DNA of 64,000 nt from a virus, in IMG/VR virus record IMGVR_UViG_3300021478_000019, positions 1-64,000 of that record; one strand, 5' to 3'. The translations under genes were made by a program, and so were the position numbers. This document shows, one piece after another, positions 15,662 through 34,236 of this stretch. How positions within the stretch are numbered: position 1 is the stretch's first letter; each line of letters opens with the position of its first letter. The notes under the pieces are model-generated. The model saw only the letters and a program-made list of their open reading frames with translations, was not told where the DNA came from and did no database searches.

Positions 15662-15892
15662 CTATATGCCCTCCAGATCCCCGAACAGGTTGGCTTGCAC
15701 CGTCCAGCCCTCGACCTGTTCGTACGCCTCCTGAAGGTCCACCAGGCCCGCCTCGCCGTCATGGTTGTGGTCGCAGTGCCACACCCCCCAGCGATCCTTG
15801 AAGCAAGGCGGGCCATCGGCGTCAGCCACCCGGATCATCCGGCCCGAGGGTCGTAGCTCCTGGGAGGTGATGATGCCGCGCTGGACAGCCAC
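15662..15892 (-). CDS. Small protein with a Cys/His cluster
   Basis: 76 residues from a GTG that overlaps the TAG of the upstream IPT gene by one base. The centre (CFKDRWGVWHCDHNHDGEAG) holds C-x9-C-D-H-x-H, a possible metal site. It is the last gene of the leftward LELPAN cassette and has no LELPAN motif itself. Confidence 0.5.
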   Translation of the reverse strand: MAVQRGIITSQELRPSGRMIRVADADGPPCFKDRWGVWHCDHNHDGEAGLVDLQEAYEQVEGWTVQANLFGDLEGI

Positions 15893-16716: not shown

Positions 16717-17027
16717 GGCGTGGCCGTGATGATGGCGATGTCCCGGTTGACCGCGTCCTGGCGAGCCTGGATGCGGGCCTGCTCGACGGCCAGGGCAGCT
16801 TGAGCGGTGGTGGTGCGGCTGCCGGCGCCGGTGGTGGCAATGTCGGTGAAAGAGGACATCCCGCCGGCACCGTTGGCGCTTGCTGCCATGGGTGAGTGGG
16901 ACCACTCCCTGGGCGTGCCTATATCCGCGGCGGCGCTGACGATCACCGACTGGTTGAACAGGGCGGCGGCGATCTGGTTGGCCGGTAGCTCCAGCACATT
17001 GATGACGTAGTTGGTGGCGGTAGCCAT
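16713..17027 (-). CDS. LELPAN-motif protein without Ig domain
   Basis: 104 residues, with AAGGAG upstream of its ATG. It starts with YVINVLELPANQIAAALFN and ends in a helical stretch (AVEQARIQARQDAVNRDIAI) like the helical middle of its paralogues. It lacks the IPT domain, so it is an anchor-only version of the cassette proteins. Its stop overlaps the next ATG. Confidence 0.6.
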   Translation of the reverse strand: MATATNYVINVLELPANQIAAALFNQSVIVSAAADIGTPREWSHSPMAASANGAGGMSSFTDIATTGAGSRTTTAQAALAVEQARIQARQDAVNRDIAIITATP

Positions 17028-17038
17028 GGGCGCGCTCC

Positions 17039-17542
17039 TTAGACGACAGTGAAGGTGGGGCCGGTGATGTTCACGCCGTCCACCGTGACGATGATGGGAT
17101 AATCACCCGGCTTGACAAGCTGACCGCCGCTGCCAGCCGGGGTATTTGCAGTCACCTGGGTATCGCTGACCACGGTGAGCGAGGTGCAGCTTCTGGTATC
17201 GATAGTGGCCCTGGTGGTGCCGGTCAGGTAAGTTCCGGTGAGGGTGATGGCGGTGCCCTTGCCACCACTGGTGGGGTTTATGGCTGTCACCGCGGGTTCG
17301 ACATCTGGGTCGGGGCCCGGAGGGCTGTTCCCACTCAGGCGGGGGTCGTCTACCTCCACGCCCACTGCGGCCAGCGCATCCACGTTGGCTTGGATGGCCG
17401 CAGTGGCCTGGTCCTGGCGCTCCTGGGACATAGGTACATCGGCGCTGACGATCTCCGGGTTGGCGTAGGCCAGGGCTGCGTTGGTATTGAGGGCTAGCTC
17501 CAGGGGATGAAGTTGCTGCTTGTGGGTGTCGACGTCGGTCAT
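17039..17542 (-). CDS. Single-IPT-domain protein with LEL anchor motif
   Basis: 167 residues. Layout: HPLELALNTNAALAYANPEI (about 12-31), a short helix with MSQERQDQATAAIQANVDAL, then one IPT domain (about 85-165: INPTSGGKGTAITLTGTYLT). The helix motif SADxPMSQERxxQA is shared with the next gene upstream (SADAPISEERAAQA). The pattern of anchor, helix and Ig-like head is consistent with a displayed virion protein. Confidence 0.62.
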   Translation of the reverse strand: MTDVDTHKQQLHPLELALNTNAALAYANPEIVSADVPMSQERQDQATAAIQANVDALAAVGVEVDDPRLSGNSPPGPDPDVEPAVTAINPTSGGKGTAITLTGTYLTGTTRATIDTRSCTSLTVVSDTQVTANTPAGSGGQLVKPGDYPIIVTVDGVNITGPTFTVV

Positions 17543-17895
17543 TCCCTGTCCCTGGCAGCAGCCTTCTGCGGCGCTGGCGCCGGCTCTTCCTCCTCGGTGG
17601 CGGTGGCTGGATGGTCGGGTACCGCCTCGACAGTGGCGGCGATCTTGTCTTGCTCGGACTGGATGGCAGCCTCGGCCTGCGCGGCCCGCTCCTCGGAGAT
17701 GGGGGCGTCAGCACTCACGTTGCCGGGGGGATAAGCAGCTGCCGCCACCGGGTTGGCCGGTAGCTCCAGCGGATTTATCACCTGCTTGTAAGGGTCCACG
17801 TAGGGCTCGGGCACGGGCTGTTCCTCGTCAGCCTGCGTGCGCTCGGACACTGCTACGTCCTCAGCAGCTTCCTCTTCATCTTTTTTGGCGGGCAT
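17539..17895 (-). CDS. LELPAN-motif protein with acidic N-terminus, no Ig domain
   Basis: 118 residues from ATG at 17895 after AGAGGAG. An acidic N-terminal tail (about 1-38) precedes QVINPLELPANPVAAAAYPP and the helix VSADAPISEERAAQAEAAI. It ends in a Glu/Pro/Ala-rich tail. It is paralogous to its neighbours in the anchor and helix but lacks the IPT domain. ATGA overlap with the downstream gene. Confidence 0.6.
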   Translation of the reverse strand: MPAKKDEEEAAEDVAVSERTQADEEQPVPEPYVDPYKQVINPLELPANPVAAAAYPPGNVSADAPISEERAAQAEAAIQSEQDKIAATVEAVPDHPATATEEEEPAPAPQKAAARDRE

Positions 17896-17906
17896 GGTGT
17901 CTCCTC

Positions 17907-18374
17907 TCAGGTGACGGTGTAGGTCGGGCCAGTGCAGTTGGTGGTGCCCACTACGGCGGTCAGGGTGTGAGGGCCCTTGCCAGGGGTGGTAGGAGTCACT
18001 GCCGTGACGGTCGTCGCGTTGGTCACATTCACAGAGGTGCAACTGGTGCCACCCAGAGCGACCGCGGTGGTACCGGTCAGGCCGGTGCCGGTCAGGGTGA
18101 TGGCCACGGCAGCGCCCTTGGCGCCGCTGGTCGGGGACACACTCGCCAACGTGGCTGCCCCCGTCCCAGCCAGGCGGGGATCGGGGCCCGCCGCCGCCAG
18201 GCCGGTGTTCAAGTCGTCCCAGCGCTGACCAATGGCGAGGCTGGCCTGGGTTACCTGCTGCGCCGTCATCGGTATGGTGGAGTCGACAGCGGTCGGGTCA
18301 GGAAAAGACTGCGCCGCCAGCGTGTGAGCCGGCAGCTGCAGCGGGTGGTATTTCGGTTTCCAGGGGTCTGGCAT
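17907..18374 (-). CDS. Single-IPT-domain protein with LQLPAH anchor motif; first gene of the cassette
   Basis: 155 residues. The anchor KYHPLQLPAHTLAAQSF is followed by the helix IPMTAQQVTQASLAIGQRW and one IPT domain (VSPTSGAKGAAVAITLTGTG). It appears leaderless: a TAAGAC box (18382-18387, minus) lies 7 nt before the ATG and no ribosome site is present. It would lead the five-gene leftward transcription unit. Confidence 0.63.
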   Translation of the reverse strand: MPDPWKPKYHPLQLPAHTLAAQSFPDPTAVDSTIPMTAQQVTQASLAIGQRWDDLNTGLAAAGPDPRLAGTGAATLASVSPTSGAKGAAVAITLTGTGLTGTTAVALGGTSCTSVNVTNATTVTAVTPTTPGKGPHTLTAVVGTTNCTGPTYTVT

Positions 18375-18460: not shown

Positions 18461-18982
18461 GTGCTAAGCCCACGCCAGTTCGGAGATCTTGCGACCGAGG
18501 CCGGCAAGACCTTCTCCGGGGCGACTGTCGATGTTGGCACCGGCCAGCGCAAGACATCGGGGTGGGCCGTGGCCCTGAAGGGCGCTGAACACGTCGAGCC
18601 GAAGGCGACGTTCGGTCCTGAGTCCATCCAGCGGTATGTCGGGCGGCATTCTGAGGCTCTGAGCCAGCCGGCTCATCACCTGGGACTGTGGCATGAGGAG
18701 AAGAGCGACCCGATATACCACGATGTCTCAGTGCTGCACCCCAATACCTACGCTGGGGGGGTGCGGGCCATCGCAGGCGGCTACCACCACGAACAGCAGG
18801 CTATCTACAACCTCGACCGCGGTGAGACTGTCACCATGCTGCCCGTCACCCGCAGACAGGACCGGGAAACTCGGCGGTCGATACGAGGACTGAGGAAGCA
18901 ACGGCCTGAGCCGGAAGGCAAGGTCTCGGACATGCCTACGAGCCAGCTGGGCGCGGCTCTTCGGAATCGTCGCTCTGTCTAG
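18461..18982 (+). CDS. LSPRQF-tagged protein, unknown function
   Basis: 173 residues from GTG at 18461, chosen because a TAGCCT box sits 7 nt upstream as in other leaderless genes here; a GTG at 18419 is possible. It begins MLSPRQFGDLATEAG, the LSxxQF peptide seen on several proteins in 25.4-27.6 kb. The body (RKTSGWAVALKGAEHVE, then RHSEALSQPAHHLGLWHEE and YHDVSV) has conserved-looking His and Trp residues, but I cannot assign a function. Its end overlaps the minus-strand gene by 47 nt. Confidence 0.55.
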   Translation: MLSPRQFGDLATEAGKTFSGATVDVGTGQRKTSGWAVALKGAEHVEPKATFGPESIQRYVGRHSEALSQPAHHLGLWHEEKSDPIYHDVSVLHPNTYAGGVRAIAGGYHHEQQAIYNLDRGETVTMLPVTRRQDRETRRSIRGLRKQRPEPEGKVSDMPTSQLGAALRNRRSV

Positions 18983-19253
18983 CTCGCATCCGGGCTCCGA
19001 TCTCCTGAGCGTAGAGATCGAGGTCGTTGTCCGCGGTGCGTGGCTCGGCCCGCCGCTCCTCCCACAGGGCGTGAGCCTTATCGCCTAGCTCCTTGAAACG
19101 CTGTTGATCCAGCTGCCTGCTTTTTATGGCTCTACGATCGTAGAGCCACCAGTATTCTCGCTGCTCGTCTGGGGGGAGGCAGCCGATGATGTTGAGGAAC
19201 GATCCGTAGGCGGGGTAGTGGTAAACCCCGTTCTCGTCTGGCCTGTTGCTCAT
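18936..19253 (-). CDS. Hypothetical charged protein
   Basis: 105 residues from ATG at 19253, which overlaps the upstream TGA; AGAGG precedes it. An aromatic N-terminal half (GVYHYPAYGSFLNIIGCLPP, YWWLYDRR) and a charged helical C-terminal half with IGARMRARQS. No recognised motif. It is the last gene of a leftward operon running from 21.4 kb. Confidence 0.5.
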   Translation of the reverse strand: MSNRPDENGVYHYPAYGSFLNIIGCLPPDEQREYWWLYDRRAIKSRQLDQQRFKELGDKAHALWEERRAEPRTADNDLDLYAQEIGARMRARQSDDSEEPRPAGS

Positions 19254-19597
19254 TTTTTCACCTCTGGTTCCACCTGGGTGCCGGTCACGGTGACGGTGCC
19301 CATGGTTGGGTGCGGGGTATACACGTACTCGGTGCCCAGGTGGGCGATGCCCTCGATGCGGGCCTGGCTGTCCTTGGGGCGTTTGCCGAAGTGGGCGTCG
19401 AGCATCTCCCCCCGGACCCCGGAGTGGTCCGAGTAGGAGAGGAAGTCCTGCGTCACCCCGTCTGAGAACAGCACCCGGTATCTCTGGATGGGGAAGGGCA
19501 GGCCGACGCACTCCTGGGCCGGCTGGGCCCGTACCGGGGCCGGGGTGACCTTGGCACGGGCCAGGCGGCGTCCGGTGGGCGGGCCATCGGTCGTCAC
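19250..19597 (-). CDS. Hypothetical protein
   Basis: 115 residues from GTG at 19597 (4-nt GTGA overlap). A basic N-terminus leads to a beta-like segment (PIQRYRVLFSDGVTQDFLSY) and TVTVTGTQVEPEVKK at the end. No known motif. Tightly coupled at both ends to its neighbours. Confidence 0.5.
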   Translation of the reverse strand: MTTDGPPTGRRLARAKVTPAPVRAQPAQECVGLPFPIQRYRVLFSDGVTQDFLSYSDHSGVRGEMLDAHFGKRPKDSQARIEGIAHLGTEYVYTPHPTMGTVTVTGTQVEPEVKK

Positions 19598-19815
19598 CAC
19601 CCGGTCTCGTCCATCTCCTCGCCGGTGAGGGGGATGGCCTCTCGGAGGACGTTGCCCTCCGAGTCCACCACCGGGCCCATGAACGTCCAGCCCCCGGCGT
19701 TGACTTCCTCCAGGGTCACGCCGGGCAGCAGATGCATGACACCGTCGTAGATCCACCCCTGTCCCCTGATGCGACCGGCCTGCTCGGTGATGTTGTAGTC
19801 CCGTTCGTCACTCAT
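19594..19815 (-). CDS. Small acidic hypothetical protein
   Basis: 73 residues, with ATG overlapping the next gene upstream by 8 nt. It contains GWIYDGVMHLLPGVTLEEV, likely a small beta/helix fold. No recognised function; co-translated with its neighbours. Confidence 0.48.
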   Translation of the reverse strand: MSDERDYNITEQAGRIRGQGWIYDGVMHLLPGVTLEEVNAGGWTFMGPVVDSEGNVLREAIPLTGEEMDETGW

Positions 19816-20107
19816 CCCAGATCATCTTCCTGATGGTGGTGGTGATGCCTCGCCGGTCCAGCACCTGGTGCAGATGCTGGTGGCTCTCAAAGCCGGTGGC
19901 CCTGGCAGCCTGCAGGATGCTGACCCCCTCAAGGACCAGTTCGCAGGCGACCTGGTCCCGTAGCTCAGTGTCGGGGGTCTTGGACATGGGTACCACCGCG
20001 CACGCCTGGGAGCAGAACAGCGTGGGCGGCTTGCTGTACCGCCCGTAGGCCACCAGGCCCCCGCAGCAGCGGCATCGGATCTCGTTGAGGTCACTAGGCG
20101 GCGGCAC
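19808..20107 (-). CDS. Zinc-ribbon plus helix-turn-helix DNA-binding protein
   Basis: 99 residues from GTG at 20107, which has AAGAAGG 9 nt upstream; an ATG at 20116 lies too close to that site. Cys pairs RCRCCGG and LFCSQAC form a zinc ribbon. The C-terminal part (ACELVLEGVSILQAARATGF, then HQHLHQVLDRRGI) is a helix-turn-helix. It is probably a small transcriptional regulator of the phage, with an unknown target. Confidence 0.6.
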   Translation of the reverse strand: MPPPSDLNEIRCRCCGGLVAYGRYSKPPTLFCSQACAVVPMSKTPDTELRDQVACELVLEGVSILQAARATGFESHQHLHQVLDRRGITTTIRKMIWDE

Positions 20108-20321
20108 CGGCGACATCCTTCTTGGCCTTGGTGATGACGGCGATGACGTCATCGATGGCTGACTCGGGGAAGGTGATGCCGCTCATACAGTCGCCGGTCG
20201 GCACCATATAGGTACCGACTTGCAACACCGACCCGGCCTGGGTGGTGCATCTGGTCACCCGGACCTCTCGGTAGTCGGCCAGCTTCACTCGGGCCAGAAT
20301 CTTCTCTTGCTTCAATGGCAT
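20094..20321 (-). CDS. Small hypothetical protein
   Basis: 75 residues after GAAAGGAAA. A Lys/Arg-rich first half (RVKLADYREVRVTRCTTQAG) and a helical Ala-rich end. No motif. It overlaps the downstream DNA-binding gene by 14 nt. Confidence 0.5.
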   Translation of the reverse strand: MPLKQEKILARVKLADYREVRVTRCTTQAGSVLQVGTYMVPTGDCMSGITFPESAIDDVIAVITKAKKDVAGAAA

Positions 20322-20333
20322 GTGGTTTCCTTT

Positions 20334-20687
20334 CTAGTTGTCGGGGTCGTAGTGCAGGGCTTTGTTCTCGACCTGCTGAGCCACGTCGGTCATGACCTTG
20401 GCTAGCTCTTCCTTGGTGATGCGGTACTTGCGGCACAGGCTGTGCCAGAAGTCGGGCTGGCCGATGGCTCGGTCGCTCTCGTCCTCCCACTCCTCAAAGG
20501 GACGCAAGCCTCGCTGGGCCGGCGTGTCGCCTATGCGAGCCGGGTCGATGTCGTTGGCCCACTCCTGCATCTTCACGGCCAGCTGCATCCAGAGGTCGAA
20601 CTTCAGCAGGCTGGTGCGCTGGCGCTTGGTGGTGACATCGAAGTCGATGGCGAAGCTGTCGCTGATGTCGATCATGTCGTCGGCCAT
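20334..20687 (-). CDS. Hypothetical acidic helical protein
   Basis: 117 residues. Contains LLKFDLWMQLAVKMQEWAND and RKYRITKEELAKVMTDVAQQ; all helical with many charges. No catalytic motif or membrane segment is visible. One-base overlap with the upstream stop. Confidence 0.5.
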   Translation of the reverse strand: MADDMIDISDSFAIDFDVTTKRQRTSLLKFDLWMQLAVKMQEWANDIDPARIGDTPAQRGLRPFEEWEDESDRAIGQPDFWHSLCRKYRITKEELAKVMTDVAQQVENKALHYDPDN

Positions 20688-20947
20688 CAGTCAGGCACGA
20701 AGTTGAAGTAGACGCGGGGCGAGTGGGTGAACTCCAGGCTGCCCAGCACTCCGTCAGAGCGGCGCCGTACGACGACGAAGGGAGCGCCGAAGGTCAGCAC
20801 CTCAAAGTCCTGCTGCAGGGCCGTGGTGTCCCAGGTGGGGCCCTGCTCGGCAGCCAGGTTGGCCTGGGGCTGACCGGTCTCGATCATGTTGCGTCGGATG
20901 TCATCGGTGTTGGTCACTTGCTCTCCTTGGTTGGTGGTGTCGCTCAT
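20687..20947 (-). CDS. Hypothetical protein
   Basis: 86 residues from ATG at 20947 (ATGA overlap). A polar N-terminus rich in Thr, Gln and Asn, then a beta-rich end (FEVLTFGAPFVVVRRRSDGV, YFNFVPD). No recognised motif. Member of the leftward operon started by the promoter at 21412-21439. Confidence 0.5.
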   Translation of the reverse strand: MSDTTNQGEQVTNTDDIRRNMIETGQPQANLAAEQGPTWDTTALQQDFEVLTFGAPFVVVRRRSDGVLGSLEFTHSPRVYFNFVPD

Positions 20948-21405
20948 GGCCACACCGAGTTGGGGTTGTGCCGCATGAAGCGGAGGCGCAGCTTGTCGAA
21001 GGGCTCCCACTGGGGTTGGCCACCACTGCGTTGGATCTCTTCGTTGATGCGGTAGTACGTGAAGAAATGCTTGGCGTAGAAGCGGCGGTGCAGCCACAGG
21101 CTGACGAGGAATACCGGCACCACTACGAGGAGGAACTCGGCGTCGAGCAGGGAGGCCCCGCCGACGACGGCCATGGTCACCAGGATGCGGTTGAGGTGCC
21201 GCCGGTACTCGGCTCGGGCCCACATCATCAGGGCTTCGCAGCCGAAGGAGTCGAGGTAGCGGCCCAGGACGGGCTTGCCGTTGATGGTGCGGAGGCTGGG
21301 AGCCGGCGGGCAGTCACGCCCATTGCGCCCGGCCCAGTAGTTCGACGAGGAGATCTTGAGTTGGGCCCAGACCTCCTCGGGGGTTGGTTGCTTGGCTGTT
21401 GTCAT
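20944..21405 (-). CDS. Small membrane protein with two transmembrane helices
   Basis: 153 residues from ATG at 21405; longer readings would start inside the promoter and are rejected. Two adjacent hydrophobic helices lie at about 72-110 (ILVTMAVVGGASLLDAEFLL then VVVPVFLVSLWLHRRFY), between soluble domains. The N-terminal domain has TPEEVWAQLKISSSNYWAGR. Its position as the first gene after a leaderless promoter suggests early or lysogenic expression; the function at the host membrane is unknown. Confidence 0.6.
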   Translation of the reverse strand: MTTAKQPTPEEVWAQLKISSSNYWAGRNGRDCPPAPSLRTINGKPVLGRYLDSFGCEALMMWARAEYRRHLNRILVTMAVVGGASLLDAEFLLVVVPVFLVSLWLHRRFYAKHFFTYYRINEEIQRSGGQPQWEPFDKLRLRFMRHNPNSVWP

Positions 21406-21450
21406 GCTCCCATTGTACTCCCAGCCCTGATCATTGCAAGTCAGGGCTAG
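21406..21450 (-). promoter_or_regulatory. Leaderless promoter, CTAGnnnTGACTTGCA family
   Basis: On the minus strand: CTAGCCCTGACTTGCAA with -35 TTGCAA (21434-21439), 16 bp, -10 TACAAT (21412-21417), 6 nt, ATG at 21405. The -35 lies inside the last codons (Asp-Leu-Gln-stop) of the upstream gene. Confidence 0.82.
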
Positions 21451-21688
21451 GATTATCTTCCTCATCCTCAAAGCCATTCTGAGCATCGGGTCCGATGAGC
21501 TTGCCCTGGTCGTCCTCGACGGTGTAATGCTCGTCGAGCCCGCCAGGGAAATCGATAGTCCAGGGGCCGGCATAAGACCTGATGCGTTCAGCGGCAAGGG
21601 CTAGAGCCTCTCGGCCTGAGTCGGCGCGCACCACGATGGTCCGCAAGGCCATGGCCTGGACGTTGACCTCGTACCTGCGCTTGGTCAT
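21431..21688 (-). CDS. Small acidic protein whose tail encodes the next promoter
   Basis: 85 residues. A beta/helix first half (RRYEVNVQAMALRTIVVRAD, then GREALALAAERI) looks like a small regulatory or modified-amino-acid-type domain. The acidic tail ends SPDLQ, encoded by the TGACTTGCAA box that starts transcription of the membrane protein gene. ATGA overlap with the upstream zinc-finger gene. Confidence 0.55.
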   Translation of the reverse strand: MTKRRYEVNVQAMALRTIVVRADSGREALALAAERIRSYAGPWTIDFPGGLDEHYTVEDDQGKLIGPDAQNGFEDEEDNPSPDLQ

Positions 21689-22053
21689 AGCTCACCGGTC
21701 CCGTGGCAGTCCGGGCAGTCGTAGGAACGCCCGTCGCCCAGGTACTTGGTGCCGGTGCCATTGCAGTAGGTGCAGTAGTTGTCACCCTCAGCGGTCCACT
21801 CCTTGATGCCGCAGGGCAGGCAGTACCGGGTACCGGACTCGCCGTAGCCTGCCACTTCACCCATGTACTCGATGTACCGGTCGCCGGGCTTGATCTCTCC
21901 GACGCAGATGTCGGCGTGGCTCTTGAGCCTGCCCTTGGGATCGTGGATGTCGGGCCGGTGGCAGTCGCACTTGCAGGCCCAGGGTTTGCGGGCGGTGCGG
22001 TAGATGCACTCCTCTAGTCTGAGGACTGGCTCTGTTGGTAATGGTTGTGACAT
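21685..22053 (-). CDS. Zinc-finger protein with DnaJ-like CxxCxGxG repeats
   Basis: 122 residues from ATG at 22053, chosen because TAAACT lies 7 nt upstream; upstream in-frame codons run into the divergent promoter. Cys motifs: CKCDCH (about 31-36), YCLPCGI, CTYCNGTGT and CPDCHGTGE; the last two are DnaJ-type half fingers. It probably binds zinc and unfolded protein or nucleic acid. Several such small proteins occur in this genome (39540, 45801). Confidence 0.62.
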   Translation of the reverse strand: MSQPLPTEPVLRLEECIYRTARKPWACKCDCHRPDIHDPKGRLKSHADICVGEIKPGDRYIEYMGEVAGYGESGTRYCLPCGIKEWTAEGDNYCTYCNGTGTKYLGDGRSYDCPDCHGTGEL

Positions 22054-22116
22054 GAAAGCCAGTTTAGCATAGGGCTTGCACCCCCCGCAAGTCAGCCCTT
22101 CTGCTAGACTGCACCT
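22054..22116. promoter_or_regulatory. Overlapping divergent leaderless promoters
   Basis: Minus: TGACTTGCGG with -35 TTGCGG (22085-22090), 18 bp, TAAACT (22061-22066), 7 nt, ATG at 22053. Plus: -10 TAGACT (22105-22110), 6 nt, ATG at 22117; its -35 is unclear (a TTGCAC at 22077-22082 is 22 bp away). The two promoters interleave and may compete. Confidence 0.6.
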
Positions 22117-22296
22117 ATGACTGTCATTGAAGTGGGGGACACCGTGATCGCACAGCACAGGAAGGGTGGCCGCAAGTTCCAGACCAAGGTCAGAGCCATC
22201 AAGGTCGAGAGGGGAGGGATCTACTACGAAGTGACCGATCCCAAAAATGGTGGCACCTACCTGGTGAGTGTGGAGCGCGTCACCAAGGTGAAATGA
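22117..22296 (+). CDS. Small beta-rich basic protein, leaderless
   Basis: 59 residues: starts MTVIEVGDTVIAQHRKGG and ends VERVTKVK. The alternating hydrophobic pattern and basic patch suggest a small SH3-like or KOW-like barrel. The ATG is 6 nt after a TAGACT box. No function is known. Confidence 0.6.
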   Translation: MTVIEVGDTVIAQHRKGGRKFQTKVRAIKVERGGIYYEVTDPKNGGTYLVSVERVTKVK

Positions 22297-22311
22297 GATA
22301 CGGTCACCCCC

Positions 22312-22515
22312 ATGTCGACAACTGAGCCAGAACCTGTAGAGCCCGAGGTAGTACCCGAAGACGAGGAAGTGGGGGAGGCCGAGGTAGTGCCCATCGACTA
22401 CCCCGGTGAGGGTGGTGACCGGGGACAGGACTGGCAGCCCGACCCCGATCCCGATATGACCGAAGCCGCACCGGTGGTTGAAGAGGAGGAAGTTGGGTAT
22501 GAAGGAGAGAGATGA
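22312..22515 (+). CDS. Very acidic small protein
   Basis: 67 residues, roughly one third Asp/Glu, almost no hydrophobic core (PEVVPEDEEVGEAEVVPIDY). Such acidic proteins can mimic DNA, but that is only a guess. A TACGGT box (22299-22304) 7 nt before the ATG suggests a separate leaderless start. Overlaps the next gene by 4 nt. Confidence 0.55.
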   Translation: MSTTEPEPVEPEVVPEDEEVGEAEVVPIDYPGEGGDRGQDWQPDPDPDMTEAAPVVEEEEVGYEGER

Positions 22516-22715
22516 CCGCTCCCGTTGGGCCCCGCTATAGCCAGCCTGGCTACTGGAACCCGCTGCGGCTGCTGGCCGTGGTGGCCACCATCGCCACCTT
22601 GGTCATCGGTTTCGTCATCGCCTTCGGCAGCCTCTCGGCCACCAGCTTCAAGGACTGGGTGGCTGCCGGGATCATCTCCGCGGGAGTTGCCCTGGCCTGC
22701 TTGATCATCGTCTAG
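22512..22715 (+). CDS. Small two-helix membrane protein
   Basis: 67 residues, with GAAGGAGAG upstream. Two hydrophobic helices: LLAVVATIATLVIGFVIAFG and the C-terminal VAAGIISAGVALACLIIV. The size and topology fit a holin-like or accessory membrane protein, but no lysis genes are adjacent, so a holin role is not claimed. Confidence 0.6.
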   Translation: MTAPVGPRYSQPGYWNPLRLLAVVATIATLVIGFVIAFGSLSATSFKDWVAAGIISAGVALACLIIV

Positions 22716-22966
22716 TCGGGCAACACATTCTCGATCATGCCCAGGCAGGCTTCCAGGTTCATGCGGACCTCAAACAGCTGATCCAGCTGGGTCTCCCGGT
22801 TCCCGCTGCCGCTGCGGTACCGGGAGATGGCCTGACCCATGGTCAACAGGGACAGGTCAACCTGGCCGACGATCTCGGCCTCGGCCATGTTGGCTGACCG
22901 TTCCCTGGCCTTCTTCCAGAACCCGGTGTCGCGTCGATACTGCCGCCAGTCCTTGAGCTTCTTCAC
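22712..22966 (-). CDS. Small basic helical protein
   Basis: 84 residues. An N-terminal basic part (KKLKDWRQYRRDTGFWKKAR) and a helical end (LFEVRMNLEACLGMIENV). It overlaps both the convergent membrane gene and the upstream gene by 4 nt. No motif. Confidence 0.5.
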   Translation of the reverse strand: MKKLKDWRQYRRDTGFWKKARERSANMAEAEIVGQVDLSLLTMGQAISRYRSGSGNRETQLDQLFEVRMNLEACLGMIENVLPD

Positions 22967-23769
22967 GCCGGCTGGCGGCGGCGGATCTTCCGTATCCGGG
23001 GCTCGGCAGGAGCTATGTCCACCACGGGTGCCGGCTCTGCCGGCCTCTTCCGGGCCTTGGCTTGACGCTGTTGCTTGCGCTTCAGTTCATCCGCGGCCTT
23101 GGCCTCAGCTGAGCCCGGCACCAGCCCATCCTGGCGGGGTCGGCCCCGAGGTCGGTCGGACTTCCGGGCTGCCGCCGCTTCCTCCCGCTGAGCCTTCTTG
23201 ATGGCGGCAATTTGCACCGCGAAGGCCGACTTGGCATAGGCGTGCCGGGGCCCGAACTTCTCCTTCAGCCCTGGTCGAGCAAAGTTGATGACCCCGCTGT
23301 TGCCACTGCCGCGGGGCCCCGCCGGCACCACGTAGACCGGGCTCCGACCCGACTTGACCTCGATGACCAGGTCGTCGTAGGCCACGCCCATGGTGTCGGA
23401 GACGTGGAGAGGCACCTTGGCCACGATGGGCCCGTAGTTGAAGAACGAGGTGGCCCACGCCTGGACGTCCTCGACGGTCTTGATGGGATGGTTGACCAGC
23501 TGCTTGGTCCGCATGCCCAGCTTCTCTAGCTCGGGCACGGTCTGGGGGTACCGCTCTAGCAGGGAGACCGCATTCCGTCGCAGCTGCTCCACCTTCTCGG
23601 GGTCGGCTCCGTTCTCGGCAGCCTCGTAGATGGTGTAGGTGTTACGGAAAATGCGCCAGCTTTGCTGGGCCTCGTCATAGACCGGGATGGTGCCGGCGCG
23701 CCCGAACTGGGTCTGCCCCGTTAGCTTGCCCCAGGCGGTCTCGATGGCGTCAATATCAACCGGGCTCAT
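22963..23769 (-). CDS. Basic protein with AT-hook-like tail, possible DNA binding
   Basis: 268 residues from ATG at 23769 after AAGGAAG. Residues 1-180 are helical and beta mixed (WRIFRNTYTIYEAAENG, DLVIEVKSGRSPVYVVPAGP). From about 185 the protein is Lys/Arg/Ala-rich, containing RPRGRPRQ (an AT-hook-like core) and ending IRKIRRRQPA. A nucleoid- or DNA-associated role is inferred from composition only. Confidence 0.55.
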   Translation of the reverse strand: MSPVDIDAIETAWGKLTGQTQFGRAGTIPVYDEAQQSWRIFRNTYTIYEAAENGADPEKVEQLRRNAVSLLERYPQTVPELEKLGMRTKQLVNHPIKTVEDVQAWATSFFNYGPIVAKVPLHVSDTMGVAYDDLVIEVKSGRSPVYVVPAGPRGSGNSGVINFARPGLKEKFGPRHAYAKSAFAVQIAAIKKAQREEAAAARKSDRPRGRPRQDGLVPGSAEAKAADELKRKQQRQAKARKRPAEPAPVVDIAPAEPRIRKIRRRQPA

Positions 23770-24113
23770 TATTCTTCCTTCTGGTACCCCAATGTTTCTG
23801 AACGCTCCACTATATGTCTCCAGTCCTGCTCCAGGGGTGTGTTGCGTGGGGATTTTCCCCTCACCCACAGGCCCAGCGCGGTGGCCTGCTGGCCTCGCCG
23901 CAGGGTCAGCCCCAGCCCGTGCCGCCAGGGCGGGGTGATCTCTCGGGTCACGGCCACGGTCAGCCGGTGGGATCCTTCTGCCGGCGTGCCTCGCCAACGG
24001 TAAAACGGCCCCCAGCAGGAGGTGTTGTCAGGAACTGAGGCCGGATTCGGGAGGCTGGGTAGTACCCAGTCGTTCTCCTCGGGGTCTTCGTAGCCGTCGA
24101 GTGGGTCGCTCAA
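23769..24113 (-). CDS. Hypothetical protein
   Basis: 114 residues from a TTG at 24113, without a clear ribosome site. Contains PFYRWRGTPAEGSHRLTVAV and LTLRRGQQATALGLWVRG. It shares 86 nt with the gene upstream in another frame, so one of the two may be shorter than drawn. Unknown function. Confidence 0.42.
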   Translation of the reverse strand: MSDPLDGYEDPEENDWVLPSLPNPASVPDNTSCWGPFYRWRGTPAEGSHRLTVAVTREITPPWRHGLGLTLRRGQQATALGLWVRGKSPRNTPLEQDWRHIVERSETLGYQKEE

Positions 24114-24225
24114 TCGGGGGCTCTGCCAGTATCTTGTCGATGTCGGCCAGGAGGTCTTCGGTCTTCTTGGCTAACTCGTCGAGTCGAGCCCGGTCGCACG
24201 GCTTTTTATCGCCCCGGCCAGGCAC
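24028..24225 (-). CDS. Small coiled-coil-like protein overlapping its neighbour
   Basis: 65 residues from GTG at 24225, 5 nt after the upstream stop (GAGGGTGAC as ribosome site). The core DELAKKTEDLLADIDKILAE is a convincing amphipathic helix; the Arg-rich tail lies in the overlap with the downstream gene and may be partly fortuitous. It fills an otherwise empty 115-nt gap. Confidence 0.48.
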   Translation of the reverse strand: MPGRGDKKPCDRARLDELAKKTEDLLADIDKILAEPPIERPTRRLRRPRGERLGTTQPPESGLSS

Positions 24226-24229
24226 TTTG

Positions 24230-24784
24230 TCACCCTCGACCCTCGGCCACCACGTTGCCCCAGCCGCCAGGACCGCCCTCTTCGGTGACATTGCCGTCGA
24301 AGGTGCCTGGAGGCCATTGGCTGTAGATGACCCGGCCCGGAGACGGTGCTGACTTGAATCGGCGCCAGGCGCCCTCGTTGATCTCGTTGAAGTGCCAGGA
24401 GGTGCCGTCCCGAAAGATCACCTCCATGACCTCCTGGCGGGCCGACCACCGGGCCTGACGGGTGGATCCGCCGGTGACGGTCTGTCCAGTGCGTATATCC
24501 CGGCCCACCTTGGTTGGCTTGATGGTCCGGGTGGGCCAGTAGTAGTCCCAGTCGGGGATGCCGGTGACGGGATCGGTGTCCGGGCTCGGGCCCGAGGGCA
24601 TCTGCAGCCCGGTGCGTTGCCGGCGGTCCCAGGGCGTGAGGACCGGCGCTGTCGCCCCTTCGGGCAGGGCTCTCCGGGCCCGCTTCTGCTCTTCCCGCTC
24701 CTGCCGGTAGCTGCGGAACTCCTTGGCCCTGGCTCGGGCCAGGCGCGCCTGGTACTCAGCTGAGTAGTCCCTCTCGGTTGCCAT
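24230..24784 (-). CDS. KTSC-domain protein
   Basis: 184 residues. A helical, basic N-terminus (YQARLARARAKEFRSYRQER) is followed by a region ending in a KTSC-like domain at about 118-160: MEVIFRDGTSWHFNEINEGA then WRRFKSAPSPGRVIYS. KTSC domains are small folds found in phage and lysyl-tRNA synthetase-related proteins. The role here is unknown. Confidence 0.6.
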   Translation of the reverse strand: MATERDYSAEYQARLARARAKEFRSYRQEREEQKRARRALPEGATAPVLTPWDRRQRTGLQMPSGPSPDTDPVTGIPDWDYYWPTRTIKPTKVGRDIRTGQTVTGGSTRQARWSARQEVMEVIFRDGTSWHFNEINEGAWRRFKSAPSPGRVIYSQWPPGTFDGNVTEEGGPGGWGNVVAEGRG

Positions 24785-24790
24785 CCAGGG

Positions 24791-25105
24791 TCAGGGTGAC
24801 GTCAACCCCGGAATGGCAGGCCGCGGGGTGAACGGGCCCGCCACGTTGGTGCCCTCTCGCTGGGACGTCCAGCCATAGCCGGTCGGGTAGGTCCCGACAT
24901 AGAAGGGGTCGATGGCGTTGATGGTGACCGGGCTGTTGGGGTAGGTCGGAATCGAGTTCGATCCGAGGACTTGGTCGGTGATGGGAAGGATGCCGGGGAA
25001 CAGCTGGTTGGTGGGGTACGCCCCGGTCAAGCCCGCCGGGACCGCGCTAGGTGGCGTCGATCCGCCTTGCTGGGCAATCCACGCTCTCCAGTCAATGACT
25101 GCCAT
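24791..25105 (-). CDS. Hypothetical Pro/Thr/Tyr-rich protein
   Basis: 104 residues, Pro, Thr and Tyr rich (VTINAIDPFYVGTYPTGYGW), low in charge, beginning VIDWRAWIAQQGG. The composition suggests an extended or structural protein. It overlaps the upstream zinc-finger gene stop by one base. Confidence 0.5.
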   Translation of the reverse strand: MAVIDWRAWIAQQGGSTPPSAVPAGLTGAYPTNQLFPGILPITDQVLGSNSIPTYPNSPVTINAIDPFYVGTYPTGYGWTSQREGTNVAGPFTPRPAIPGLTSP

Positions 25106-25377
25106 CAGTTACCTGCCTTTTCTCGTTGGTAGAGAGTGGACCGCAGGACGTAGAACTCGGGGAGCAACTCGTCCAACTTTGACACCTGGTCCTTCGGATC
25201 CGACATCGCTTTGACGTCCCGCAGCCCCTCCATAATCATGTCCAGCCGATGGGGGATCGACAGGATCTGGACACGGGGTTTTTCTGCCGGGGGCTCATGG
25301 ACCTGGGCAAAGTGGGTCTCCAGGTCGTCGGAGACCTCGCCCTTGCAGACCAGGCAGTAGCCGGTGGTGAGAGACAT
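25105..25377 (-). CDS. Single C2H2 zinc-finger protein, leaderless
   Basis: 90 residues from ATG at 25377, which is 7 nt after a TAGGCT box. Residues 7-26 (CLVCKGEVSDDLETHFAQVH) fit C-x2-C-x11-H-x4-H. The remainder is helical (MEGLRDVKAMSDPKDQ). Probably nucleic-acid binding and, as first gene of a leftward operon divergent from the tagged operon, possibly regulatory. Confidence 0.6.
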   Translation of the reverse strand: MSLTTGYCLVCKGEVSDDLETHFAQVHEPPAEKPRVQILSIPHRLDMIMEGLRDVKAMSDPKDQVSKLDELLPEFYVLRSTLYQREKAGN

Positions 25378-25411
25378 CAGGGCCAGCCTAGATGGCACCT
25401 AAGCTCGGGAT
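25378..25411. promoter_or_regulatory. 34-bp divergent region with two -10 boxes, no TTGCA
   Basis: Minus: TAGGCT (25385-25390), 7 nt, ATG at 25377. Plus: TAAGCT (25400-25405), 6 nt, GTG at 25412. Any -35 of either promoter would fall inside the opposite gene. Transcription in the two directions is probably mutually exclusive. Confidence 0.5.
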
Positions 25412-25684
25412 GTGTCCATCCCCTTCCAGACAAGGCAGTTTGAGGATAAACCGAACCGGAGGATGCCGAGGACCAAGGTTCGCCTCGACAAAATAGTGGC
25501 CACCCAACGTCAGCTGGACGCCTCCAAGGTGGCCGATATTGCCCGCCAGCCTGCCGAGGCCATCAGCACTGATCCCGTCGTCCACCCCCACCAGGGCCGG
25601 TACTACGTCAGTGACGGGCACCACCGGGTGGCGGGCGCCATCGAGCGCGGGGACACCCACATCTGGGTCAGGAGGGTGAAGTGA
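25412..25684 (+). CDS. ParB/Srx-like protein with RQF N-terminal tag
   Basis: 90 residues from GTG, leaderless. It starts SIPFQTRQFEDKP, a variant of the LSxxQF peptide. Residues 23-90 (IVATQRQLDASKVADIA, DPVVHPHQGRYYVSDGHHRV) form a ParB/sulfiredoxin-like domain with the DGHHR signature; such domains bind nucleotides and act as CTPases or nucleases. No DNA-binding HTH follows, so this is a stand-alone catalytic or structural module. Confidence 0.7.
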   Translation: MSIPFQTRQFEDKPNRRMPRTKVRLDKIVATQRQLDASKVADIARQPAEAISTDPVVHPHQGRYYVSDGHHRVAGAIERGDTHIWVRRVK

Positions 25685-25917
25685 AGAAAGTGCGCGCAGA
25701 TCCGGCCTCGGGTGGATCTAAGACGGGGCGTAGCCCCAAGGCCACCAACTGGTCATCCTTCTACGACGGCGCCAGCGGCGGGCGCCGGCCTGGGGACTGG
25801 CCCATGATCCTGCAAGAAGCCTGGGGGCTGCGGGCCAACGAGCCCACAGAGCCGCTGCCCTACGGTCCCGACAACATGACCAACCGGGGCTCTCGGGCCA
25901 GTCAGTACAGCAGCTGA
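25681..25917 (+). CDS. Small hypothetical protein
   Basis: 78 residues from GTG (4-nt overlap). Basic and Ser/Gly-rich at the start (SGGSKTGRSPKATNWSSFYD), with WPMILQEAWGLRANEP later. Probably disordered at both ends. Unknown function. Confidence 0.48.
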   Translation: MKKVRADPASGGSKTGRSPKATNWSSFYDGASGGRRPGDWPMILQEAWGLRANEPTEPLPYGPDNMTNRGSRASQYSS

Positions 25918-25920
25918 ACC

Positions 25921-26436
25921 ATGAGTGTCTGCCTGGTGACCGTGGAGGGGGTGCTGGGTGAACACAGCACGCTGCACGGGTTCCACCCCATCGTCGAGGG
26001 GGTGCGCCTGGTCCGGGCCATGCACTCTGAGTACCAAATCATGTTCTCGACCACCCAGAGCGGCTACGAGGCCGTCGACTACTGGCTGCGGATCAACGGC
26101 ATGATGCGGCCCACCTTCTACGAGGATCTGCTTTACCGGACCCGGCCCTGGACCGACCTGACCGACGTCGAGCTTCAGACTGAGCATGCCCATCACCTGC
26201 GGACCACGGGGGCCGACGTGGGCATGGTGGTGTCAGCGGACCCCGAGACCATCCTGCGGATCACCCGGCTGGGGTTCCCCTCGGTCTTCTTCGTCAACCC
26301 GACCTACCGCTGGGCCGAGTACCGGCCTGACCATAAGCGGCTGCCGCGGCCCTGGCAGGAAATCGACGACGAGATGGTGCGCCAGCGCGAACTGAAGGCC
26401 ACCGACCCACGCCTGAACGAGATGGAGGAAGCATGA
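25921..26436 (+). CDS. Degenerate HAD-like protein
   Basis: 171 residues. The order of segments resembles HAD hydrolases: LVTVEGVLGEH where the DxDGT loop should be, YQIMFSTTQSGYEAV at motif II, and DVGMVVSADPETILRI near the motif III/IV area, with VFFVNPTY at the end. The nucleophile Asp is replaced (TVEGV), so phosphatase activity is doubtful. A binding or regulatory role is possible. Confidence 0.5.
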   Translation: MSVCLVTVEGVLGEHSTLHGFHPIVEGVRLVRAMHSEYQIMFSTTQSGYEAVDYWLRINGMMRPTFYEDLLYRTRPWTDLTDVELQTEHAHHLRTTGADVGMVVSADPETILRITRLGFPSVFFVNPTYRWAEYRPDHKRLPRPWQEIDDEMVRQRELKATDPRLNEMEEA

Positions 26437-26669
26437 GCGCCTCTGATGGGCTGAGCAAGCGGCAGTTCTACACCGAGTCCAACCTGCTAGAGCAGGGCAA
26501 CACCGACGAGTTGGACGTCCGCACCAGGGGCCTCCAGAACATGACCAGCAACGTCTTCAAGCCCAGCTTCTCCTCCGACTACACCACGGTGCGCTCGACG
26601 CCTTCGCCTGGTGGTGATAGCCAGGCCAGCCAGGGCAACGAGGCCGATGTCGACGACGAGGGGGAGTAG
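26433..26669 (+). CDS. Small LSKRQF-tagged protein
   Basis: 78 residues: MSASDGLSKRQFYTESNLLE, then a Ser/Thr/Gly/Asp-rich, probably disordered rest. The N-terminal peptide matches the LSxxQF tag of its operon neighbours. ATGA overlap upstream. Function unknown. Confidence 0.55.
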   Translation: MSASDGLSKRQFYTESNLLEQGNTDELDVRTRGLQNMTSNVFKPSFSSDYTTVRSTPSPGGDSQASQGNEADVDDEGE

Positions 26670-27131
26670 GTGAGCCATCGCGCCCTTTCCCCTCAGCAGT
26701 TCGATATCTCCCAGGAGATGGGCCTGCATCCCTCCATCGGAGGTGAGGGCTCACCGGACGTGATTAGGGGTGGAGCGGCCCGCCATGTCATGAATCAGGC
26801 AGGTATTCGCCAGACGTCTCCGACCGGCCAGAAGACCTACGGCGGGCATGTGGAGCATGTCGATGCTCCCCACATCGCTGGAGTTACTGAGGGCTATGGG
26901 CAGAGCCGGGGCTACCCGCACGGGGAGGTTTGGACCTCGCAGGCTCATCTGCATCTGCCCACCCTGGCCAGGTACGCCCAGGGGGACGTGCCCAAGTTGG
27001 ACCCGGACTACGACATCGACGAGAGCGGTGGGCCCCACGTTCCTTACGAGCCCGAGACCTACCACCATGGTGGCAAGGAGTGGCTGGCCGAGGGCCATCA
27101 CCGCACCATTGCTAGGAGGCTGGCGGGATGA
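26670..27131 (+). CDS. LSPQQF-tagged protein with ParB-like HHR motif
   Basis: 153 residues from GTG after GGGGGAG. It opens SHRALSPQQFDISQEMG. The body is His/Gly-rich (KTYGGHVEHVDAPHIAGV) and ends in EWLAEGHHRTIARRLAG, similar to the nucleotide-binding HHR segment of ParB-like proteins. It may be a divergent ParB/Srx relative; confidence in function is low, but the tag is clear. Confidence 0.58.
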   Translation: MSHRALSPQQFDISQEMGLHPSIGGEGSPDVIRGGAARHVMNQAGIRQTSPTGQKTYGGHVEHVDAPHIAGVTEGYGQSRGYPHGEVWTSQAHLHLPTLARYAQGDVPKLDPDYDIDESGGPHVPYEPETYHHGGKEWLAEGHHRTIARRLAG

Positions 27132-27550
27132 GCCACCGCGCCCTGAGCCCGGAGCAGTTCAAGGTCTTCCCGGCTACCCCCAAGGAGATGGGCGGCGTGC
27201 CGCACCACACCGTCGAGGCGTGGGCCCCGGAGCATGCCAGCACGGAGTGGGCCCAGGCCCGCCCGGAGGAGAGGAACCAGTACGCCGGCTCGTCGGTAGA
27301 TCCCGGCCACCGGCCTCTGGGTTCCATCTCCTGGCACCACAAGACCGGTGAGATCCGGGGCGTCTACGTCGAGAAGGAACACCAGCGCCAGGGCATCGCT
27401 ACCGCCCTGTTGGGTCATGCTCGCCAGGCCGCAGCTGAGACCCGAGGGGTGACGCCGCCCCGCCACTCTGCTGATCGCACCGCGTCCGGGGAAGCCTGGG
27501 CCCGCTCGACGGGCGATCGCCTACCGAAGCGGAGACCCCGTGAGCCGTGA
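27128..27550 (+). CDS. LSPEQF-tagged GNAT-type acetyltransferase
   Basis: 140 residues. It starts MSHRALSPEQFKVFP. Residues about 60-100 (ISWHHKTGEIRGVYVEKEHQ, then RQGIATALLGHARQ) carry the GNAT acetyl-CoA pyrophosphate loop (Q/RxxGxA) after the central strand. The domain is short, and the C-terminus (SADRTASGEAWARS) fits the last GNAT strand. It probably acetylates a protein or small molecule. It overlaps neighbours at both ends. Confidence 0.68.
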   Translation: MSHRALSPEQFKVFPATPKEMGGVPHHTVEAWAPEHASTEWAQARPEERNQYAGSSVDPGHRPLGSISWHHKTGEIRGVYVEKEHQRQGIATALLGHARQAAAETRGVTPPRHSADRTASGEAWARSTGDRLPKRRPREP

Positions 27551-27956
27551 AGCGTTAAACGATAACCAGTTCTCCTGTCCGACCTGCGGCCAATCCCACG
27601 GTCCCGATGAACCGGTCCTGGGTAACACCGGGTGCCCATCCTGCGGGCGTACCATCCCGTTCCTGGCTCGGTCACGGGGTGGCCGGATCGAGACCGGCAC
27701 CAGGCAAGGTGGCACCGCCCACTGGATGACGCCAGAGACCACCGTGGTGCGGAAGGAAGGTAAGGTCCACCGCGCTCTTTCCTATGGCCCTGACCGAACG
27801 ACGTACATCCATGGTGAGGGTCGCAGTGGACAGGAGGCCATCAACAACGTGATGAGCCAGATGGCTGACCAGCAGGGGAAGAAGTGGTGGCCGACGAGTC
27901 CGGGGTTCCACAAGCAGATGGACGATGCCCGTCGAGACTTGCTGGGGTTGGAATGA
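27540..27956 (+). CDS. Zinc-ribbon protein with QF N-terminal tag
   Basis: 138 residues from GTG. Starts SREALNDNQFSCPTCGQS, a divergent form of the tag, then a zinc ribbon (CPTC and CPSCGR, about 12-42). A basic stretch with RGGRIETGTRQGGTAHW and a helical C-terminus (NNVMSQMADQQGKKWWPT) follow. Unknown role; possibly nucleic-acid binding. Confidence 0.55.
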   Translation: MSREALNDNQFSCPTCGQSHGPDEPVLGNTGCPSCGRTIPFLARSRGGRIETGTRQGGTAHWMTPETTVVRKEGKVHRALSYGPDRTTYIHGEGRSGQEAINNVMSQMADQQGKKWWPTSPGFHKQMDDARRDLLGLE

Positions 27957-29425
27957 GCCTGAGACATCTGGAGTTGTTCTTCGCCGGGGCCGAAACCCCG
28001 ACCTGGAGGAAGCTGCTCCTGGCCGAAAGCGTGCCCCATATAGCGGTCAACTACCTCCACCTCCAGGCCCGTACCGGCAGAAAGCCGTGGTTCTTAGCTG
28101 AGCATTTCTCCCCGGAGCAGCAGATCTTCGTGCTGTCGGGAGCGTCGGGCACTGACCGTAAGAAGTGGTCCCTGGCCCAGCATGAGGAGTTCCTCTCCGA
28201 CTACCTCCAGTTCGTGCAGGACAACCTGGAGCGGCTGAGCTTCTTCACCGAGTACGACCCCGAGATGCTCGGGCTGGACTGGGTGCTACGTCAACGCCAG
28301 GTCTGGGCCGGCCTGGCTGACGACAAGTTCGTGCCCGTCTGGCATGAGGTTTGGGGGGCCCCGCTACTTCGCACCATGGTCGAAACCTTCCCCAACCTGG
28401 GCGTGCCACCGGTCTCGCCGCGGACCCAGAACGTGCTGTCATCCTTGGTCCGACGCACCAAGTTGAACCTGCACGGGCTGTCCTTCAGCCATCCCTACGA
28501 CGAGCCCGGTGGCCTGTACTCGACCATAGTTTCGTCCAGTTGGATCTCCCCAACGAGATTCGGGGAGACCGTGGTGTGGGACCACGGGCGGCTACGTCGC
28601 TACTCCGCGGAGGACAAGGAGCAGGCTCGACGACGCCACCAGACCCAGTTCACCCAGGCGGGCTTCGACGCCGAGGCCATCTTGGCCGACGACAACAACG
28701 AGGTGTCCCGCTACACCATCTGGGCCTGGCGCCAGCTGGAGCAGGCCATGGCCGGGCCCGACCGTCGTCGAGTCATCCGCCGCCCCCAGGTAGCAACTAA
28801 CGGTCACGTCGACCATGAGCCGGATTCAGCCCCCGAGGTCGTAGCTCCAGTTGCTATCGACCCCCCCGTGTTGCAGGAAAATGGTCATCTGCTGCCCGAC
28901 GTGATCCGGCCACTACCGGTGTTCAACTACCGCACGGTAACAAGCACCGTGAACAGCCCCGATGGCCCCGGAACGGTCGAGGTGCAGTCCCAGGTCGCGG
29001 TTATGGGCCAGGCTGCCCTGCGCCAGTGCGATAGTTGCTCACTGGCTGTTGTTTGCCCGCTGTTCAGTTCCGGCTCATCCTGCCGCTACTCGATACCCGT
29101 CGAGATCCGCAACCGGGACCAGCTGCTGGGCATCCTGCACAGCCTGCTGGAGATGCAGGGCCAGCGCGTCGCCTTCGGCTTCTTCTCGGAGCAGCTGCAG
29201 GGGGGCTACCCTGATGCCAACTTGTCCTCGGAGTTGGACCGCATGATGCGGATGACCCAGGCGGTCAAGGACATTCAGGACAACAGGGACTTCCTAAAGG
29301 TGACGGTGGAAGGGCGAGCGCAGAGTGGAGTCCTACGGCGGCTCTTCGGGGCAGAACGGGCTGAGACCCTCCACCGAGTCGATCCCGACCGGGCGGAAGA
29401 TGCCGTCCGTCGCACCATGCAATAA
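27953..29425 (+). CDS. 490-residue Cys-cluster protein, unknown function
   Basis: The ATG at 27953 overlaps the upstream TGA; longer readings run into the preceding gene. The N-terminal two thirds are helical (HLELFFAGAETPTWRKLL, SLAQHEEFLSDYLQF). Residues about 359-378 hold a Cys cluster CDSCSLAVVCPLFSSGSSC, a C-x2-C-x5-C-x8-C pattern that could bind zinc or Fe-S, followed by VEIRNRDQLLGILHSLLEMQ and GQRVAFGFFSEQLQGGYPD. This tail looks like conserved phage proteins of unknown role. A terminase-small-subunit-like function was considered but cannot be shown. Confidence 0.55.
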   Translation: MSLRHLELFFAGAETPTWRKLLLAESVPHIAVNYLHLQARTGRKPWFLAEHFSPEQQIFVLSGASGTDRKKWSLAQHEEFLSDYLQFVQDNLERLSFFTEYDPEMLGLDWVLRQRQVWAGLADDKFVPVWHEVWGAPLLRTMVETFPNLGVPPVSPRTQNVLSSLVRRTKLNLHGLSFSHPYDEPGGLYSTIVSSSWISPTRFGETVVWDHGRLRRYSAEDKEQARRRHQTQFTQAGFDAEAILADDNNEVSRYTIWAWRQLEQAMAGPDRRRVIRRPQVATNGHVDHEPDSAPEVVAPVAIDPPVLQENGHLLPDVIRPLPVFNYRTVTSTVNSPDGPGTVEVQSQVAVMGQAALRQCDSCSLAVVCPLFSSGSSCRYSIPVEIRNRDQLLGILHSLLEMQGQRVAFGFFSEQLQGGYPDANLSSELDRMMRMTQAVKDIQDNRDFLKVTVEGRAQSGVLRRLFGAERAETLHRVDPDRAEDAVRRTMQ

Positions 29426-32000: not shown

Positions 32001-32182
32001 GCCTGCCCCGAAACGCCGACTCAGGGCGCGTTATCGAGTGCCATGGCGGCTTGACCGACGCGATCTATCACGGTTTGGCAACTGGGCTGTGCCCTAGCTG
32101 CGGCGAGTTCGTGGCACTCATCAGCAATGGCCACACGATTCGCCACTACGCCCCTAACGAACAGGTAGGTGATAGGCCATGA
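31997..32182 (+). CDS. Small Cys/His protein
   Basis: 61 residues from ATG at 31997. Contains VIECHGGLTDAIYHGLATGL and CPSCGEF, a possible zinc knuckle. Co-translated with neighbours (4-nt overlaps). Confidence 0.5.
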   Translation: MSLPRNADSGRVIECHGGLTDAIYHGLATGLCPSCGEFVALISNGHTIRHYAPNEQVGDRP

Positions 32183-34187: not shown

Positions 34188-34236
34188 CTTGTGGTCTAGG
34201 AAGGGGCGCTAACTAGACCACGTCAGAAATTGTAGG

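What the first reader, a model, noticed from the sequence alone, without database searches (positions are those of the whole stretch)
18461..27956. A shared N-terminal LSxxQF peptide on unrelated proteins
MLSPRQF (18461), FQTRQF (25412, ParB-like), LSKRQF (26433), ALSPQQF (26670), ALSPEQF (27128, acetyltransferase) and ALNDNQF (27540, zinc ribbon) all open their proteins within the first 15 residues, though the bodies are unrelated. A short common N-terminal peptide on different cargo looks like an address label: packaging into the particle, docking to a common partner, or processing by a phage protease. I know of no description of this arrangement, but could not search.
Basis: partly seen in the sequence, partly recalled or inferred. 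Interest (0 to 1): 0.85.

Follow-up and report, generated by a model that had tools for sequence, protein, structure and literature searches.

The report
Shared N-terminal tag on phage cargo proteins
A contractile-tailed phage from an environmental sample puts the same ~11-amino-acid start on half a dozen otherwise unrelated small proteins, and comparison with other phages, including relatives of T4, suggests that this start is an address label that loads the proteins into the virus particle so they are delivered into the next bacterial cell.

Summary
L[SN]xxQF occurs five times in all six frames of the window, each time at a protein start. In 12 genomes of this phage group it is 28 times N-terminal and 15 times internal (odds ratio 17). 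A scan with no prior motif ranks L...QF first. Related contigs carry MSH.A-L[SN]xxQF on about 16 unrelated bodies: acetyltransferases, ParB-like proteins, a rifampin-type ADP-ribosyltransferase, a putative HEIGH metalloprotease, a zinc ribbon. The tag is kept through synonymous codon changes and stays at the very start when ~50 residues separate it from the body.

The main evidence for function is leader swapping. One body (phrog_2579) carries LSxxQF/LNxxQF in this group, [TS]AR[ED]Q..xL.PW in cluster C-type actinophages, and MKTYTEFLSE, a T4-type capsid targeting sequence (CTS), in T4-like Vibrio phages.

Best reading: a lineage-specific, CTS-like virion-loading leader (0.65). No T4/HK97-type prohead protease was found, so cleavage is unsupported. 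Presence in virions is untested.

The parts
18461..18481 (+). tag M-LSPRQF, start of gene 18461-18982 (body like the C-terminal part of phrog_3170 / Ghost gp105)
25412..25441 (+). tag MSIPFQTRQF (diverged), start of ParB-like gene 25412-25684
26433..26468 (+). tag MSASDGLSKRQF, start of gene 26433-26669 (78 aa, unknown)
26670..26702 (+). tag MSHRALSPQQF, start of gene 26670-27131 (ParB-like GHHR core, inferred)
27128..27160 (+). tag MSHRALSPEQF, start of gene 27128-27550 (GNAT acetyltransferase)
27540..27572 (+). tag MSREALNDNQF, start of gene 27540-27956 (zinc ribbon-like)
   Evidence: EF variants in G001
25681..25917 (+). 78-aa protein in the same cassette; its G003 orthologue has TNISQF near residue 18, here TNWSSF; possibly a degenerate tag

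Best explanation
The ~11 N-terminal residues, consensus M-S-H-x-A-L-[NS]-[PD]-[EQ]-Q-F, are a lineage-specific virion-loading leader that works like the capsid targeting sequence of T4 internal proteins. During head assembly the leader binds one phage head component (scaffold/core, portal region or inner shell; not identified). This recruits small effector proteins (acetyltransferase, ADP-ribosyltransferases, ParB-like proteins, a protease, a zinc ribbon) into the prohead, and they enter the next host with the DNA. Shown: the shared leader, its N-terminal position, the unrelated bodies, protein-level conservation, and leader swapping between phage groups including a T4-type CTS. Inferred: binding to a head component, packaging and ejection. 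Probably not cleaved.
For: 1) N-terminal enrichment 28 vs 15, Fisher p = 4e-18; 23 permuted motifs give 0-2 N-terminal hits each. 2) A blind scan ranks L...QF first of all 3-residue N-terminal patterns; the same type of scan on part of T4 ranks the known CTS (KT..EF) first and ranks LS..QF and L..DQF first in G005 and G011. 3) About 16 separate body families. 4) Synonymous divergence between window paralogues (Ser TCC vs AGC, Leu TTA/CTG/CTT, His CAT/CAC). 5) The leader stays at residue 1 when ~50 residues are inserted before the body. 6) Leader swap: G011 protein MSSLNPDQFG|DYRMSHRPASPSDD; Phabba gp212 MRLVTAREQYELLAPWRTASD|DDYRMRHRPPEAD; Skog gp173 with leader MRGIRTAREQVATLAPWRTAS and the same body at its C-terminus; Vibrio phages R11Z and Va3 MKTYTEFLSE|YHMQHRAPSPPDD; T4 ipII/ipIII begin MKTYQEFIAE. 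R11Z has a T4-type S77 prohead protease. PHROGs place G005_23803 in phrog_2579 from residue 12, just after the tag, and match Phabba gp212's first residues to phrog_2878 (Ghost gp104) and phrog_30890, i.e. the leader is shared there too. 7) A second swap: the 18461 body resembles the C-terminal part of Ghost gp105, which starts with TAREQFEML. 8) Several tagged genes sit among head and tail genes. 9) An Arr-type ADP-ribosyltransferase among the cargo parallels T4 Alt, a packaged ADP-ribosyltransferase (general knowledge).
Against: No virion proteomics exists for any tagged protein, and no paper in the library mentions the peptide in a phage. The T4-type swap rests on one body family. The window's main cassette (25.4-28.0 kb) is ~25 kb from the tail genes and is not in the head operon. 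The closest cultured relative, BRock, lacks the tag, as does the half of LuckySocke that was read, despite 67-68% identical capsid proteins. No prohead protease was found, so the T4 cleavage step is missing. The binding partner is unknown. AlphaFold models are too poor to say how the tag sits.
Confidence: 0.65

Rival explanations
1. The leader is a docking tag for an intracellular partner that is not part of the virion (a host or phage hub protein), and the tagged proteins act together in the infected cell.
For: Unrelated bodies with a common short peptide; the main window cassette lies outside the head operon.
Against: The same body carries the T4-type capsid targeting leader in T4-like Vibrio phages, which points to the virion; cluster C leaders sit in the capsid-tail module.
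Confidence: 0.2
2. Ordinary paralogues: duplicated 5' gene ends (or gene conversion of the start) with diverged or replaced bodies, the tag itself having no function.
For: Adjacent genes 26670 and 27128 share MSHRALSP[QE]QF; 25412 and 26670 share a ParB-like core.
Against: Codons of the tag differ synonymously, including two-step serine changes, while the peptide is kept; the other window bodies show no similarity; conservation stops after F; the leader changes between phage lineages while the body persists.
Confidence: 0.08
3. The tag is a propeptide removed by a phage maturation protease, as in T4.
For: T4 CTSs are removed by gp21 (PMC9026906).
Against: No S77, S78 or ClpP-type protease in the window record or its relatives, while T4 and R11Z score E < 1e-98 with S77; no conserved residue follows F.
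Confidence: 0.05
4. Chance, or a translation-start (DNA/mRNA-level) signal rather than a peptide.
For: Across all viral contigs the motif is background.
Against: P = 1e-6 to 1e-13 in single genomes; distance from the start varies from 1 to 18 residues; synonymous codon variation; the start-anchored DNA pattern finds true tags in 4 of 4 viral hits but essentially none of 27 bacterial-genome hits.
Confidence: 0.02

Closest known systems
T4 internal-protein capsid targeting sequence (CTS; ipI, ipII, ipIII, Alt)
   Same: A ~10-residue N-terminal peptide shared by proteins with different bodies, required for head packaging; an ADP-ribosyltransferase (Alt) among the cargo; the same phrog_2579 body bears a T4-type CTS in Vibrio T4-like phages.
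   Different: Different sequence; no gp21-type protease found; packaging not shown here; more cargo families per genome (up to 8 tagged genes in G005).
P1 DarB N-terminal packaging signal (PMC9024508)
   Same: An N-terminal signal sufficient to put a reporter into the capsid.
   Different: The P1 Dar proteins show no common N-terminal consensus by BLAST according to the authors; here a clear consensus is shared.
SPN3US gp53/gp54 identical N-termini (PMC5694885)
   Same: Identical first 15 residues on diverged head proteins, compared by the authors with the T4 CTS.
   Different: Those are paralogues with long cleaved propeptides; here most bodies are unrelated and there is no sign of cleavage.
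[TS]AR[ED]Q..xL.PW leader of cluster C-type actinophages (Ghost gp104/gp105, Phabba gp212/gp229, Skog gp166/gp173; found here)
   Same: A shared N-terminal leader on different bodies in the structural region; shares two cargo bodies with the window lineage.
   Different: Different leader sequence; equally untested.

Membership tests
capsid targeting sequence (T4-type) | short peptide at the extreme N-terminus | tested here: met
   motif starts at residue 1-18, mostly 5 (0-based)
capsid targeting sequence (T4-type) | shared by several proteins with unrelated bodies in one genome | tested here: met
capsid targeting sequence (T4-type) | T4-type sequence MKT[YF]xEF..E | tested here: not met
   consensus is MSHxAL[NS]xxQF; the T4 type is found only on the Vibrio T4-like homologue
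capsid targeting sequence (T4-type) | removal by the prohead protease | tested here: not met
   no S77/S78/ClpP-type protease by profile search; cleavage itself not testable
capsid targeting sequence (T4-type) | necessary and sufficient for packaging into the head | not testable with these tools
   needs virion proteomics or a reporter fusion
capsid targeting sequence (T4-type) | cargo delivered to the host | not testable with these tools
   needs an infection experiment
paralogous gene family | homologous bodies | tested here: not met
   only 25412/26670 show a relation among window members

The most novel reading that the evidence does not exclude
Tailed phages in general load exchangeable effector enzymes with lineage-specific N-terminal address labels, each matched to its own head. 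The same effector changes label when it moves between phage groups (LSxxQF, TAREQ..L.PW, MKTYxEF), and in this group the label is used without proteolytic removal on a large, fast-changing cassette of ejected effectors.
Probability: 0.45. Interest if true: 0.82.

Novelty: new variant of a known kind. Interest (0 to 1): 0.66.

Why it matters
If right, a short peptide read from sequence predicts which of the many unknown small genes of these phages are carried in the particle and enter the host first. It extends the T4 capsid-targeting principle to a large uncultivated myovirus group and to cluster C-type actinophages, and gives a packaging label that could be tested for loading chosen proteins into phage heads for laboratory hosts. 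The leader-swap comparison is a general way to find such labels in other phages.

Tried and rejected
An unbiased IMG/VR scan for ALNxxQF gave background hits, mostly non-genic or internal. Searching papers for LSPEQF/LSPRQF/LSPQQF gave one unrelated plant paper. BRock (whole genome) and the half of LuckySocke that was read have no tag. The bacterial-genome scan gave chance-level hits. AlphaFold models of 27128 (pLDDT 67) and 26670 (pLDDT 50) were too weak to interpret beyond low confidence at the tag, so no fold search was run. A PDB profile search of the phrog_2579 body found nothing, so I do not call it an ADP-ribosyltransferase, although its YRAxP...GDWVT...YA pattern reminded me of one. 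PADLOC found nothing. The cyanophage 'internal virion protein' hits of 18461 (E = 0.02) were not used as evidence. Literature on virion proteomics of cluster C phages gave no usable list.

Full report
WHAT IS THERE. The window is part of a 117,510-base virus contig of a contractile-tailed phage. Its capsid protein is 67-68% identical to those of Streptomyces phages BRock, LuckySocke and others. L[SN]xxQF occurs five times in six frames of the window, all at protein starts, and was not seen in the rest of the record. The sixth case, FQTRQF at 25412, is a diverged copy: its orthologues read FSTQQF, FSTKQF and LSTAQF.

IS IT MORE THAN CHANCE. Expected N-terminal hits in the window genome are 0.17 against 5 observed (P = 1.2e-6); in the related contig G005, 0.10 against 8 (P = 1.6e-13). 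Over 12 genomes there are 28 N-terminal and 15 internal hits (p = 4e-18), while 23 rearranged motifs give 0 to 2 N-terminal hits each. Without any prior motif, L...QF and S..QF rank first and second of all three-residue patterns in N-termini. A similar scan on part of T4 ranks its known capsid-targeting peptide first, which serves as a positive control. Over IMG/VR as a whole the motif is ordinary background, so it is a property of this lineage. The start-anchored DNA pattern gave four viral hits, all true tags, and 27 bacterial-genome hits, essentially none of them tags.

ANATOMY. From 49 tagged proteins the consensus is M-S-H-[RE]-A-L-[NS]-[PD]-[EQ]-Q-F; F is invariant and Q nearly so, and conservation stops after F. 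The motif begins 1 to 18 residues from the start, most often at residue 6. Bodies fall into about 16 families by BLAST once three chance entries are set aside: GNAT acetyltransferases (Pfam), ParB-like proteins, an Arr-type ADP-ribosyltransferase (PF12120, E = 1.5e-12), a putative HEIGH metalloprotease (sequence reading only), a zinc ribbon (weak), the phrog_2579 body, and 43-45 aa proteins that are little more than the tag. In one family ~50 residues lie between tag and body in two relatives, yet the tag stays at residue 1. Window paralogues keep the peptide through different codons.

LEADER SWAPPING. The tagged protein G011_85445 (MSSLNPDQFG-DYRMSHRPASPSDD...) shares its whole body with Phabba gp212 (MRLVTAREQYELLAPWRTASD-DDYRMRHRPPEAD..., E = 1e-20), with Vibrio phage R11Z gene 92 (MKTYTEFLSE-YHMQHRAPSPPDD..., E = 8e-18), and with the C-terminal part of Skog gp173, which starts MRGIRTAREQVATLAPWRTAS. 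A cluster E phage (Toto) has the body with no leader (MSD-YRGTHTAPTDD). T4 ipII and ipIII start MKTYQEFIAE, the experimentally established capsid targeting sequence (PMC9026906). Va3 has the same protein, and R11Z carries the matching S77 prohead protease. R11Z has a second MKTFDEFITE protein. The join falls at the same place in each protein, just upstream of the YR/YH..H.AP box; PHROGs independently begin the match of G005_23803 at residue 12. A second body, that of 18461, matches the C-terminal part of Ghost gp105, whose start is TAREQFEMLQPW. In Ghost, Phabba and Skog the [TS]AR[ED]Q leader occurs on six proteins, and no internal copy was found in the stretches read.

MECHANISM. The simplest account is that each phage lineage has its own head-matched N-terminal label and that effector bodies change label when they change lineage. 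Steps shown here: the shared label, its position, the unrelated bodies, peptide-level conservation and label swapping. Steps inferred: binding to a head component, packaging, ejection. No prohead protease of the S77, S78 or ClpP type was found in the window lineage or in Ghost and Phabba, and no conserved site follows the tag, so the label is probably kept.

WHAT IS KNOWN. T4 CTS (PMC9026906), P1 DarB (PMC9024508; the authors found no common N-terminal consensus among Dar proteins) and SPN3US gp53/gp54 (PMC5694885). No paper in the library describes the LSxxQF or TAREQ leaders as far as the searches could tell (the TAREQ string itself was not searched). By function it would work like a CTS; by membership it fails two T4-specific features (sequence, protease) and two cannot be tested here. 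Hence 'new variant of a known kind'.

LIMITS. Environmental contigs without a host; my own gene caller, with starts checked only through orthologues; family counts rest on BLAST; the T4-type swap is one body family; no virion data.

Noticed in passing
15892-18374 (- strand): Five neighbouring proteins share another N-terminal box (NMLELPV, NVLELPAN, HPLELALN, NPLELPAN, HPLQLPAH), several followed by what look like IPT/TIG-type Ig repeats: a second shared N-terminus in the same phage.
   Followed up: no
27953-29425: Queuine tRNA-ribosyltransferase-like gene (phrog_887) directly downstream of the tagged cassette; a gene with the same annotation exists in BRock.
   Followed up: no
L009 10435-11076, L137, L177: QGxLF and QLALPG pentapeptides, which resemble beta-clamp binding motifs, recur in tagged proteins.
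   Followed up: no
Ghost (L006) 32107-35287, Phabba (L005) 31449 and 46092, Skog (L289) 1499 and 7305: Cluster C-type phages carry their own shared N-terminal leader [TS]AR[ED]Q..xL.PW on different proteins of the structural module.
   Followed up: partly
G010 and G013 contigs (L269-L274, L280-L285): Relatives without LSxxQF have several proteins starting with LHTxG[FIL][ST]: possibly yet another leader.
   Followed up: no
G001 contig (L252-L257): Seven predicted N-termini read Y..HMT; probably mis-called starts over a repeated upstream DNA signal.
   Followed up: no
L291 (Vibrio phage R11Z, 167693 +): A second short protein with a T4-type leader, MKTFDEFITES.
   Followed up: no
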